Shown piece by piece: positions 12,374 to 16,460 of a stretch of DNA of 64,000 nucleotides. The stretch is from NCBI RefSeq assembly GCF_900258505.1, contig NZ_LT984895.1, positions 1,145,952 through 1,209,951 on the forward strand, in the 5' to 3' direction. Source of the stretch: Brachybacterium timonense (GTDB lineage Bacteria > Actinomycetota > Actinomycetes > Actinomycetales > Dermabacteraceae). Under the pieces are notes generated by a model. That model was not told the DNA's origin. It ran no database searches and worked only from the letters and a program-made list of their open reading frames with translations. Position 1 is the first letter of the stretch. Each line of letters opens with the position of its first letter. The translations under genes were made by a program, and so were the position numbers.

Positions 12374-12470
12374 GCTCTCACGTGCATCTGAGCTGGGCAT
12401 GATTGGTGATGCCGAGGCGGGCTGGGGCGAGCGCTCTAGGCTCGACCTCATCAACGATGAGGAGGCCGCG

Positions 12471-13194
12471 ATGTGCGGGAGGTTCGTTCTCGACTACGAC
12501 TAGGCGGGGCTGCTCCACGCCTCCGTCGCCACCAAGGCTGATCGCGAGGGCCCGGACTGGTCTCCGGTCTTCTCCATCGCCCCGTCCACGCTCGTTCCCG
12601 TCGTGCGCGAGCACTTCGACGACGGCGGCGAGCTCGTGCGCACTGGAGCCGGCTCACTGGGGTCTGCGTCCCTCGTGGGCCAAGGAGAAGGGCCTGCGGC
12701 CGATCAACGCCCGCTACGAGACGGTGACGACCAACGGCATGTTCCGCGGCTCGTTCTCCTCGCAGCGCGTCGTCGTGCCGATGACCGGCTACTACGAGTG
12801 GGGCGAGCAGGAGGACGGCACCAAGCAACCCTACTTTGTGCACCCCAAGGACGGCGGCCTGCTGAACGCTGCCGGCCTCTCTGCCGCGCGGAGGTCCGAG
12901 GACGGCGAGTCTTGGGACATCACCTTCACGATCATCACCCGCGAGGCCAAGGATGCCGCCGGCGAGGTCCACGACCGCATGCCCGCCTACCTCCCGGACG
13001 ACAAGCTGGGGGAGTGGCTCGCCCCCGGCAAGCTCGACGACGACGAGAAGGCGGACCTCTACCAGGGACTCGGCGAGGTCTCCGAGGAGATCGCTGCGAC
13101 CTTCGTGACCCACCCGGTCAGCCGCGAGGTCAACAACGCCCGAAAGGTCGACCGCACGGACCCCTCGCTCATCGAGCCTGTCGAGCTCGACTGA
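12471..13194 (+). pseudogene. SOS response-associated peptidase (SRAP/YedK) pseudogene
   Basis: The start MCGRFVLDYD with a GAGGAGG ribosome site is the classic SRAP N-terminus, where Cys2 forms the DNA-protein crosslink at abasic sites. Codon 11 is TAG (12501-12503). The frame then continues as recognisable SRAP sequence (GPDWSPVFSIAPSTLVPVV). A one-base shift near 12645-12655 moves the coding sequence into another frame, which holds the rest of the domain: PAHWGLRPSWAKEKG, INARYET, VPMTGYYEW and VHDRMPAYL with the catalytic His. Cys2, Asn/Arg/Glu and His are all present. Only the two lesions disable it, so the decay is recent or the sequence is faulty. Family role: protection of abasic sites in single-stranded DNA (HMCES/YedK). 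Confidence 0.85.
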
Positions 13195-13528: not shown

Positions 13529-13699
13529 CTACTCCCGCGCTTGCCGCAGCCTAACCTCGGCAATCAGCACAATGATGATCCCAATGGTCGGCAGTATTGT
13601 GACGAAGGCCGGTGGATGGATTACGCCAAGGAAGGTGAGTACTCCCAGGAGAATCCCGATGGCTACAAGTATGTATCCTATTGGTCGAAGGCTTCGCAT
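13529..13699 (-). CDS. Small two-helix membrane protein, possible immunity protein
   Basis: A 56-residue frame runs from an ATG at 13699 (AAAGGA site about eight bases upstream) to a TAG at 13529. The product is almost entirely two membrane helices: IGYILVAIGILLGVLTFLGV and AFVTILPTIGIIIVLIAEV, joined by a short HPP turn and ending in a basic tail (RLRQARE). Its base composition is less GC-rich than the surroundings. It lies 33 bases after the stop of the secreted bacteriocin-like gene on the same strand, so the two are probably one transcript. Small two-helix proteins in this position often protect the producer from its own secreted peptide; that is inference only. Confidence 0.65.
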   Translation of the reverse strand: MRSLRPIGYILVAIGILLGVLTFLGVIHPPAFVTILPTIGIIIVLIAEVRLRQARE

Positions 13700-13732
13700 T
13701 GACCAATCCTTTCTTGGCGCGGATTAAGCGGG

Positions 13733-14391
13733 TCAGGCGAAGGGGTTGCACCCGCCATGCCCGGTGAGCAGCCAGTACCAGGTCACGCAGCCGTCCTCTT
13801 CGGCGCACATCCCGATGATTCCACTTGCGGCAGCGAGTGCGGTCGCGACGACTCCGCCGGCGATACCCCCTACAGCGGTTTCGGACGTCGCGAGGCCGAT
13901 GCCTCCGGCAATGGCGGAGGCCGTAGCGGTCCCCGCGGTGATCTTGCCGGCAAGGTAGCTGTCGAAGTGGATCTTAAGGCCGTACCAGTGGCCCGAGATG
14001 GATCCGTGTAGATGCTCTTGCCGCCGGCCTGGGGCGTGATGGCTCCGCTGGTACTTCCGGCCCCGACACTCTCGTTCCAGTCCTCGACAGCCTTGCGCAC
14101 CTCGTCGGTGGCGGATGGGCCGAGTTCACGTTCGGCGGCCGCTTCGTCCAGCTCGTAGGCCGTGCCGTTCTGGGTAACGAACTTGTCGGCAGCGGCAATC
14201 TGCTCGTCCGTGAGGTCGAGGGTTGCAGACTTTCCTGTCGCGCTCTTGCCTTGCGGGAGGGGCTGCGTCGGTGAGGCTGAGGCCGAGGTGGTAGTCCCGG
14301 TGCCGACCAGGGCTACGGCCAACGCGCCTCCCCCCAGTACAAAAGCGCGTCTGCGATCGACGTTCAGTTCAGCAAAAATGGACATTTCCAT
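13733..14391 (-). pseudogene. Secreted bacteriocin-like protein, frameshifted
   Basis: The ATG at 14391 has a GAGGGG site. The product begins with an export signal (RRRAFVLGGGALAVALVG, then ASASPT). A helical, charged propeptide-like part follows to about residue 125 (DLTDEQIAAADKFVTQ, AAERELGPSATDEVRKAVED). Near 14000-14015 the coding frame shifts. The new frame carries SISGHWYGLKIHFDSYLAG, then a glycine/alanine-rich hydrophobic stretch (TATASAIAGGIGLATSE, GGIAGGVVATALAAASGIIG) and three Cys in CAEEDGC and GHGGC, ending NPFA at a TGA at 13733. The intact product would have about 218 residues. A WYG-like motif before glycine-zipper helices recalls uncharacterised secreted actinobacterial proteins. 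The break may be genuine or a sequencing error. Confidence 0.6.
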
Positions 14392-14451: not shown

Positions 14452-14480
14452 AGGCTATGTACGGCTAAAGAGTGAGTCAA
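14452..14480 (-). promoter_or_regulatory. Putative promoter of the secreted bacteriocin-like gene
   Basis: On the minus strand TTGACT (complement of 14475-14480) and TAGCCT (complement of 14452-14457) are separated by exactly 17 bases. They lie about 60 bases upstream of the ATG at 14391. The -35 match is good and the -10 match moderate. Confidence 0.45.
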
Positions 14481-14783: not shown

Positions 14784-16025
14784 TCAGTAATCCTCGGAGA
14801 GCTCGGGCCAGTCCCGGACCAGGTGTGCCTCGAGCGCCCGGTGGCGGAAACTGTAGTTCGCTCCGCGGTTGATGAGCCCGCGGGTCGCATCCAGCCGCTT
14901 GGCGAAGGAGGCGACCTGCGTGGAGTTGGAGTAGCCCATCTCGGAGGCGATGTTCTTCAGCGCCCGCTCCTCGGGGGCCAGTGTCGCCATCGCTTGGATC
15001 ATCTGCGCCTCCTTCTCCGGGAGACGCTCGAGGATCCGCTCGACGTGGTCCCGCGCCTCGCGCTTGGCCGTCTGCCAGCCACGCAGCACCTGGGCCCTGG
15101 TGATGACCTCCGAGTCCCCGGCGTACCAGGCGTGGTAGCCGGCCAGCTGGAACAGGAACGGCTCGCCCTGGCACAGGTCCAGGATTGCGTCACGCGCAGC
15201 AGGTTCCATGCCTATGCGCATCGTGCCGCCCTGCTCGTCCGGCACGGGCCAGCCGTCGAGGACGAAGGACTGTAGTGCCATCTCGAGGTCCTCGTCGCTC
15301 AACGGGGAGAGCACTCTGCGGTCGAATCGGCGTCCGAAGGTGGCACCGCGCCGGGCGGAGGCCATGTCCCAGAAGTCCGGCAGACCTGTGAGGTAGACGG
15401 CGATCGGCAGGTAGCGCTCGATGACCATGTTCGAGGCCGTCGTGACGCCGATCTTCTTTGAGGTGACGTCCCCGAGAATGATGAGCAGCTGCGAGAGCAC
15501 CGCGGGGTCGGTGATGTTCTGGACCTCGTCGAGGTGGATCAGGACGACAGTGTCCTTCCGGTGCGCCGCGGCCTCGCCGATGCGGATCATCAGCTCGCGC
15601 AGGGCTGCGAATGCCTCCGGCGTCTCTTGCTCGCGCATTGCCACAGACACCCCCTTGGCTGAGATCGAGGTGACGCGGGCGAGCAGGTTGCCGATCTTCG
15701 TGTCGGCCTTGCTGAAGCCGATCTCGCCGGACAGGTCCAGGAGCGCGCTGGCGAGGATCGCGAGCGGATCGGCTCCGAGAGGGATCCGCAACTGGCCGGT
15801 GACGAGATCCCCGCGCTCCTTCGCGTTCTCGGTGATGTAGCCGACGAGCGTCGACTTGCCGAGCCCGGCCTCCGCGAGGATAAGGCGGGGGCGTTCGGGG
15901 AGCCCGTCCACTCTGCGCGGGCGCACGATATCCACCCAGTCGTTGACCTCATCGTGCCGACCGGCCCAGATCGGCGGAACGACATCTGGCTGGGTGCTGA
16001 AGGGGCAGTCCACGGATCGGCGCAT
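14784..16025 (-). CDS. Stand-alone AAA/STAND-like ATPase
   Basis: The 413-residue protein has Walker A LAEAGLGKSTLVGYI (about residue 52), Walker B VVLIHLDEVQNI (about 165), a sensor-like GVTTASN, and an arginine-rich segment RRGATFGRRFDRRVL that may hold an arginine finger. The C-terminal part (GEPFLFQLAGYHAWYAG, then a winged-helix-like ALKNIASEMGYSNSTQV) matches the layout of a widespread, often mobile, actinobacterial ATP-binding family of unknown function. No Shine-Dalgarno motif precedes the ATG at 16025. Instead a GTTAAC-containing repeat begins four bases upstream, so initiation may be leaderless or controlled by a bound repressor. Confidence 0.8.
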   Translation of the reverse strand: MRRSVDCPFSTQPDVVPPIWAGRHDEVNDWVDIVRPRRVDGLPERPRLILAEAGLGKSTLVGYITENAKERGDLVTGQLRIPLGADPLAILASALLDLSGEIGFSKADTKIGNLLARVTSISAKGVSVAMREQETPEAFAALRELMIRIGEAAAHRKDTVVLIHLDEVQNITDPAVLSQLLIILGDVTSKKIGVTTASNMVIERYLPIAVYLTGLPDFWDMASARRGATFGRRFDRRVLSPLSDEDLEMALQSFVLDGWPVPDEQGGTMRIGMEPAARDAILDLCQGEPFLFQLAGYHAWYAGDSEVITRAQVLRGWQTAKREARDHVERILERLPEKEAQMIQAMATLAPEERALKNIASEMGYSNSTQVASFAKRLDATRGLINRGANYSFRHRALEAHLVRDWPELSEDY

Positions 16026-16028
16026 GCT

Positions 16029-16096
16029 GTTAAGGTTAACAAGAGCCGCGCTCGTTGTTAAGGTTAACGAGACTCTTCGGCCGAGCTAACGTTAAC
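16029..16096. promoter_or_regulatory. Three GTTAAC-type repeats with exact 28-bp spacing
   Basis: GTTAAGGTTAAC occurs at 16029-16040 and 16057-16068, and the variant GCTAACGTTAAC at 16085-16096. The start-to-start distance is 28 bp in both intervals. Each repeat contains the palindrome GTTAAC. The array fills the divergent region between the ATPase start (16025) and the truncated parD (16136). It is probably an operator array, perhaps for the ParD protein or for another regulator of the ATPase. Confidence 0.65.
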
Positions 16097-16135: not shown

Positions 16136-16255
16136 ATGGCTCAGAGCATCTCTGTCACCCTCGATGACCACTATGCGCGCTTCGTCGCCGAGGAAGTCGC
16201 CTCAGGGCGCTACCGGCCGCCACCTCGGCCGGGTCTGGACAGAGTCTTGCTTTGA
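16136..16255 (+). pseudogene. Truncated ParD-type antitoxin
   Basis: The ATG at 16136 opens MAQSISVTLDDHYARFVAEE, followed by VASGRYR. This is the ribbon-helix-helix N-terminus of ParD1 antitoxins, in which SISVTL is the DNA-contacting strand. After SGRYR, where helix 2 should continue with an SEVVR-like sequence, the protein changes into unrelated residues and stops at 16255. The break coincides with an IS110 transposase fragment read on the opposite strand. The toxin-neutralising C-terminal part and any ParE gene are gone. The surviving DNA-binding domain and the repeat array upstream suggest a decayed autoregulated parDE locus. Confidence 0.7.
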
Positions 16256-16460
16256 AGATCTCTCCGGTCTGGACGTCCATCGCATGCGCCACGACGCTGC
16301 GGGCATGCACATCCAGACCAACACTCGTACGCTCGGTAAACAACCGGGGCCTCCCACGTATGTCGGAAAGGCCAGACAGGCCCACCCTGTCCGGCAACCC
16401 ACGCATCGTTGCGCGGTGAGGCCCCGGCCTGCCAGAGCCCTCACCCCAATCCGGGGCCAC
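16212..16460 (-). mobile_element. IS110-family transposase remnant (5' end)
   Basis: On the minus strand a TTG at 16343, preceded by GGGAGG, opens FTERTSVGLDVHARSVVAHA followed by MDVQTGEIFKARL and PDPAEV. This is the RuvC-like N-terminus of IS110-type recombinases, with the first catalytic Asp in GLDVHA. The frame is cut after about 45 residues at the junction with parD near 16212. The sequence upstream (16344 to about 16460) may be the element's 5' non-coding part; it contains GGCCCCGG and CCGGGGCC arms. No second half of the transposase is present, so the element is dead. Borders are approximate. Confidence 0.65.

What the first reader, a model, noticed from the sequence alone, without database searches (positions are those of the whole stretch)
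13529..14391. Secreted bacteriocin-like protein with an adjacent two-helix membrane protein: candidate toxin-immunity pair
A signal peptide, helical propeptide, WYG-containing glycine-zipper hydrophobic domain and three C-terminal cysteines are followed 33 bases later by a 56-residue two-helix membrane protein on the same strand, behind one promoter-like signal (14452-14480). The architecture fits an undescribed class of actinobacterial secreted antagonists. Here the precursor is frameshifted near 14005, so producer activity may be lost while immunity is kept.
Basis: partly seen in the sequence, partly recalled or inferred. Interest (0 to 1): 0.75.

Follow-up and report, generated by a model that had tools for sequence, protein, structure and literature searches.

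The report
Broken bacteriocin gene beside kept immunity
This bacterial genome carries a damaged gene for a secreted bacteria-killing protein next to an intact small membrane-protein gene that probably protects against it, and intact relatives of the pair in a few other bacteria point to a small, still unnamed bacteriocin family.

Summary
On the minus strand, 14391-14021 encodes a signal peptide plus helical propeptide. The ~90-residue hydrophobic WYG/Cys domain (13733-14020) lies one frame over, and an intact 56-aa two-helix membrane protein (13529-13699) starts 33 nt later. The two frames match consecutive parts of one family profile, so the break is real in this sequence. The promoter claim did not hold. 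No Pfam, NCBIfam or PHROG model matches. Eight related actinobacterial copies were found (one also in this genome), thinly scattered: 1 of 38 congeners. Seven of nine copies have a two-helix gene next to the toxin, six on the same strand from -34 to +57 nt; otherwise 0 of about 123 ORFs do. Toxin genes are broken in four of nine; in the three of these with a partner, the partner is intact. Of 177,635 PDB sequences only one scores significantly: a bacteriocin, circular enterocin NKR-5-3B (E 1e-4). Two Macrococcus plasmids carry more distant relatives. Two geobacillin-26-family genes, including the proven bacteriocin alicyclobacillin 24, have the same two-gene layout, but these proteins fail that family's membership test. 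Best reading: a membrane-acting exported bacteriocin with its immunity protein, the toxin dead here and immunity kept. A new variant of a known kind.

The parts
14021..14391 (-). Signal peptide (twin-arginine-like RRRAFVLGGG...SASA) and acidic helical propeptide of the toxin precursor, frame 1 (the ORF itself runs on out of frame to 13870)
   Evidence: ORF list; family profile hit to propeptide at 14044-14325, E 2.9e-8, from a profile that did not contain it
13995..14045 (-). Frame break between propeptide and toxin domain
   Evidence: Profile positions 24-125 and 140-232 hit in two frames either side; intact relatives are read in one frame
13733..14020 (-). C-terminal toxin domain (HGSISGHWYGLKIHFDSYLAGKI...CAEEDGCVTWYWLLTGHGGCNPFA), frame 2, stop at 13735-13733; conserved W, glycine-rich helical hairpin and two conserved cysteines
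   Evidence: Relatives by single-sequence search in other genomes down to E 2.9e-24; alignment; profile hit to bacteriocin NKR-5-3B
13707..13712 (-). Ribosome-binding site AAAGGA before the small gene
   Evidence: Sequence
13529..13699 (-). 56-residue two-helix membrane protein, probable immunity protein; intact
   Evidence: ORF list; two hydrophobic segments 10-26 and 31-47; conserved neighbour in relatives, background 0 of about 123 ORFs

Best explanation
A bacteriocin locus. The larger gene encodes a precursor exported by the general secretory (Sec) or Tat pathway. After signal-peptide removal, and probably cleavage of the propeptide by an extracellular protease, the ~90-residue C-terminal domain is released. 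It has strands flanking a glycine-rich helical hairpin, and two conserved cysteines that probably form a disulfide. The hairpin would insert into or permeabilise the membrane of related bacteria. The 56-residue hairpin membrane protein, encoded directly downstream and probably made from the same transcript, protects the producer by binding the toxin, or its membrane receptor, in the membrane. In this genome the toxin gene is frameshifted, so only the immunity protein can be made in full, giving a strain that is immune but does not produce. Shown: the two halves in two frames, the family, the conserved neighbour, the intact small gene, and the sequence similarity to a membrane-acting bacteriocin. 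Inferred: killing activity, proteolytic maturation, the disulfide, the shared transcript, the immunity function, and that the frameshift is a real mutation rather than a sequencing error.
For: Relatives in other actinobacterial genomes are full-length in one frame with signal peptide and propeptide. A two-helix small protein lies at the 3' side in seven of nine loci: same strand at +33 (window), +14, +57, +55, +4 and -34 nt, and once convergent at +72. Background: of 125 gene-like ORFs in the same contigs only three have such a neighbour within -20..+80 nt, and all three cases are this family's own small genes. Three of the four broken copies (window, L006, L020) keep an intact small gene; one intact copy carries three two-helix ORFs in tandem. 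The domain profile's only significant hit in the PDB is enterocin NKR-5-3B, E 1.1e-4; none of 20,000 shuffles of the matched stretch scored as high in each of eight leave-one-out profiles. Alicyclobacillin 24, secreted and antibacterial with membrane damage (PMC13176240), and its A. fastidiosus homologue have a two-helix ORF 60-63 nt downstream. Signs of mobility: 1 of 38 congeners, relatives on Macrococcus plasmids, a resolvase gene beside one copy, lower GC than flanks (0.61-0.63 against 0.66-0.70).
Against: No member has been tested for killing. No curated family model matches. The small proteins are hardly alike in sequence (13-27% identity to the window's), so co-ancestry of the partners is not shown. 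Two distant actinobacterial relatives (L036, L038) and both Macrococcus loci have no such neighbour. The structure model was too poor to use (mean pLDDT 42). The NKR-5-3B similarity covers 44 residues only, and no other circular bacteriocin in the PDB scored. No reads were available to check the frameshift.
Confidence: 0.72

Rival explanations
1. The secreted protein is not an antagonist but a surface or signalling protein of the producer (for example an envelope-anchored protein held by its hydrophobic hairpin), and the small membrane protein helps export or anchoring.
For: No activity is known for any member; no immunity family matches; one relative (L036) has a long proline/threonine tail like a wall-spanning protein and no small partner.
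Against: Very patchy occurrence (1 of 38 congeners), location with mobile genes and on plasmids, decay of the secreted part with retention of the partner, multiplied partners in one locus, and similarity to a bacteriocin only.
Confidence: 0.15
2. The locus is a working toxin-immunity pair and the frameshift is a sequencing or assembly error.
For: Only one base step separates the frames and both halves still match the family well; no reads could be checked. The second copy in the same genome (L038) is broken at a run of seven G, a typical error site.
Against: The break in the window is not in a long homopolymer. Many long ORFs of the window are intact. The neighbouring SRAP gene (12470-13194) carries an in-frame stop codon as well as a frameshift, which points to real decay here. 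Broken copies also occur in two other genomes.
Confidence: 0.2
3. The frame change is a programmed ribosomal frameshift that regulates the toxin.
For: Several copies switch frame near the propeptide/toxin border.
Against: The shifts differ: -1 in the window, +1 in L020 and L038; there is no shared slippery sequence; the best-preserved relatives are read in a single frame.
Confidence: 0.04

Closest known systems
Geobacillin 26 / alicyclobacillin 24 (NCBIfam NF035925, Geo26A_fam)
   Same: Signal peptide, ~240-aa precursor, C-terminal hydrophobic glycine-rich helices near an ETxV motif, and in two of three loci a 54-62 aa two-helix ORF about 60 nt downstream; alicyclobacillin 24 is antibacterial and membrane-active (PMC13176240).
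   Different: No sequence membership: NF035925 does not hit these proteins or this genome; profile comparison only 35-37% probability over the hairpin.
Enterocin NKR-5-3B and circular bacteriocins
   Same: 44-residue stretch SYAAKKVI...GSAVA...GGG...AGIVATA aligns with the hairpin, E 1.1e-4.
   Different: Circular bacteriocins have leaders, head-to-tail closure and an ABC/DUF95 gene set (general knowledge; PMC10888436 describes one); here there is a signal peptide, a long propeptide, a Cys-bearing tail and no such genes next door.
Closticin 574
   Same: 309-aa preprotein with a 27-aa signal peptide, processed to an 82-aa C-terminal peptide (PMC10888436).
   Different: Sequence relation not tested here (sequence not available in the tools).
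Dysgalacticin with DysI, streptococcin A-M57
   Same: Sec-exported class III bacteriocin with an adjacent membrane-associated immunity protein, plasmid-borne; disturbs membrane potential (PMC8308785).
   Different: Sequence relation not tested here.

Membership tests
Geobacillin-26 family (NF035925) | Match to the curated profile over 40 bits | tested here: not met
   No hit in window proteins or relatives at E up to 10 or 1; genome search no hit; alicyclobacillin 24 hits at 123.6 bits as a positive control
Geobacillin-26 family (NF035925) | Signal-peptide precursor of ~240 aa with C-terminal hydrophobic helix | tested here: met
   Intact relatives 228-258 aa; hydrophobic domain in alignments
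Geobacillin-26 family (NF035925) | Antibacterial, membrane-damaging activity | not testable with these tools
   Needs protein and indicator strains
Circular bacteriocins | Sequence similarity in the helical hairpin | tested here: met
   NKR-5-3B E 1.1e-4; 0 of 20,000 shuffles reach the score in each of 8 leave-one-out profiles
Circular bacteriocins | Neighbouring ABC/DUF95 (SpoIIM) biosynthesis genes and no long propeptide | tested here: not met
   Long propeptide; neighbours are a two-helix ORF, SRAP and an AAA ATPase
Circular bacteriocins | Head-to-tail closure of the mature peptide | not testable with these tools
   Needs the isolated product
Toxin-immunity pair | Conserved adjacency of toxin and small membrane protein above chance | tested here: met
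   7 of 9 actinobacterial loci (6 same strand); 0 of about 123 other ORFs
Toxin-immunity pair | Small protein protects against the toxin | not testable with these tools
   Needs expression in a sensitive strain

The most novel reading that the evidence does not exclude
A separate, unnamed bacteriocin family: linear, signal-peptide-exported proteins whose C-terminal killing domain is a distant relative of the circular-bacteriocin helical hairpin, held by a disulfide between two conserved cysteines instead of by backbone closure, and needing only one small two-helix immunity gene instead of an ABC/DUF95 cluster. The family has spread across Actinobacteria and to Staphylococcaceae plasmids.
Probability: 0.25. 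Interest if true: 0.65.

Novelty: new variant of a known kind. Interest (0 to 1): 0.45.

Why it matters
Bacteriocins exported with an ordinary signal peptide and immunised by one tiny gene are easy to produce and easily missed: neither half has a family model, and the ~50-aa immunity ORFs often go unannotated (even beside alicyclobacillin 24). The sequence pattern (HG...HWYG...D...K, glycine hairpin, C...C) plus the downstream two-helix gene gives a way to search for them, and the geobacillin-26 loci suggest the two-gene layout may be general. The loci where only the small gene is intact are natural cases of immunity without production.

Tried and rejected
Pfam, NCBIfam, PHROGs and PADLOC scans of the toxin and small proteins gave nothing above cut-off. 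tblastn of the domain against phages and plasmids was empty; only the relative L007 found Macrococcus plasmids, weakly (E 0.06), and a profile comparison then supported that link (93%, E 2.7e-7 for the single comparison). Profile hits to leader regions in one genus (L024 and L025 examined; the other hits at the same profile positions not inspected) are other exported proteins sharing only signal-peptide-like composition, and were dropped. L008-L015, L042 and L048 were weak hits, mostly in long unrelated frames, and were not used. The structure model was too poor for a fold search. Programmed frameshifting was rejected because the shift differs between copies. The promoter was not confirmed. 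Searches of the viral contigs found no relatives.

Full report
What is there. Reading the minus strand from 14391, the sequence encodes MEMSIFAELNVDRRRAFVLGGGALAVALVGTGTTTSASA, a signal peptide with a twin-arginine-like motif, followed by an acidic helical stretch (LDLTDEQIAAADKFVTQNGTAYELDEAAAERELGPSATDEVRKAVEDWNESV). This frame runs on without meaning to 13870. The hydrophobic domain HGSISGHWYGLKIHFDSYLAGKITAGTATASAIAGGIGLATSETAVGGIAGGVVATALAAASGIIGMCAEEDGCVTWYWLLTGHGGCNPFA lies in the neighbouring frame and ends at 13733. The 56-residue ORF 13699-13529 starts 33 bases later behind AAAGGA. It has two hydrophobic segments and charged ends, so it should form a membrane hairpin with both ends inside (topology inferred).

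The frame break. A profile built from relatives, with the window's leader left out, hits the leader frame (14044-14325, profile positions 24-125, E 2.9e-8) and the domain frame (13739-14014, positions 140-232). The domain hit is partly by construction because that row was in the profile; the leader hit is not. So the two ORFs are one gene in two frames. The break is not in a long homopolymer. Many long ORFs of the window are intact, while the adjacent SRAP gene has both a frame change and an in-frame TAG. I take the break as real decay, but no reads were available.

Relatives. One of 38 genomes of the genus has the gene. In a sample of 396 genomes of the order, relatives occur in L004 (E 2.9e-24), L005, L006 and L007, and by profile also in L036 and L046. 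Others are Nocardia vaccinii L020 and a second copy in this same genome, L038. L004, L005 and L007 are full-length precursors in one frame (235, 228 and 258 aa) with signal peptide, a propeptide ending near an HGYIKSHWYG-like start, glycine-rich helices and two conserved cysteines. Macrococcus plasmid proteins share the propeptide pattern and the WWG motif (profile comparison 93% probability), so the family probably crosses phyla.

The neighbour gene. A two-helix ORF follows on the same strand in the window (+33 nt), L004 (+14), L006 (+57), L007 (+55), L020 (+4) and L046 (overlap of 34 nt), and lies convergently at +72 nt in L005. L007 has three two-helix ORFs in tandem. L036, L038 and the Macrococcus loci have none. 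Among 125 gene-like ORFs on the same contigs and the window, three had such an ORF within -20..+80 nt, and all three involve this family's small genes. In the broken copies window, L006 (5'-truncated) and L020 (frame break), the small gene is intact; broken L038 has none. The small proteins are divergent, which is common for immunity proteins of divergent toxins (general knowledge).

What it does. [quoted passage not shown] 0.0013 with the four-row profile). With the matched stretch shuffled 20,000 times, none reached the true score in any of eight leave-one-out profiles (the run with the full profile gave no output and is not used). Independently, the two-gene layout recurs with geobacillin-26-family proteins. 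Alicyclobacillin 24 (PMC13176240; secreted, narrow-spectrum, membrane-associated killing) has an unannotated two-helix ORF 63 nt downstream, and its A. fastidiosus homologue an annotated one at +60 to +69 nt. The proteins studied here are not members of that family by the curated profile, and profile comparison is inconclusive (35-37%). Closticin 574 (PMC10888436) and dysgalacticin/DysI (PMC8308785) are further known examples of parts of the design. I therefore judge this a membrane-acting exported bacteriocin with its immunity protein, with the toxin inactivated here.

Limits.

Noticed in passing
window 12470-13194 (+): SRAP (SOS-response-associated peptidase) gene beside the locus is broken: in-frame TAG after MCGRFVLDYD and a later frame change; Pfam matches only from profile position 50.
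   Followed up: partly
own genome C1:409083-409379 (locus L038, 1495-2215, - strand): Second family member in the same genome, also out of frame, at a run of seven G after the leader; no two-helix gene next to it.
   Followed up: partly
L052 25951-26139 (- strand), Alicyclobacillus acidoterrestris plasmid NZ_CP080468: Unannotated two-helix ORF 63 nt downstream of the alicyclobacillin 24 gene, similar to an annotated 54-aa protein (L060:2272-2436) beside the A. fastidiosus homologue; a candidate immunity gene for the geobacillin-26 family.
   Followed up: partly
L007 661-1391 (- strand): Three tandem two-helix ORFs behind one intact toxin gene, the first two clear paralogues.
   Followed up: partly
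L006 1261-1676 (- strand): Toxin remnant lacking its 5' part behind a TetR-like gene, with an intact two-helix gene.
   Followed up: partly
window 14784-16025 (-) and 16015-16070: AAA_16-type ATPase ORF upstream of the locus, with a 28-base direct repeat (GTTAAGGTTAAC core) at its start; an IS110-like transposase fragment appears at 16155-16460 (by eye).
   Followed up: partly
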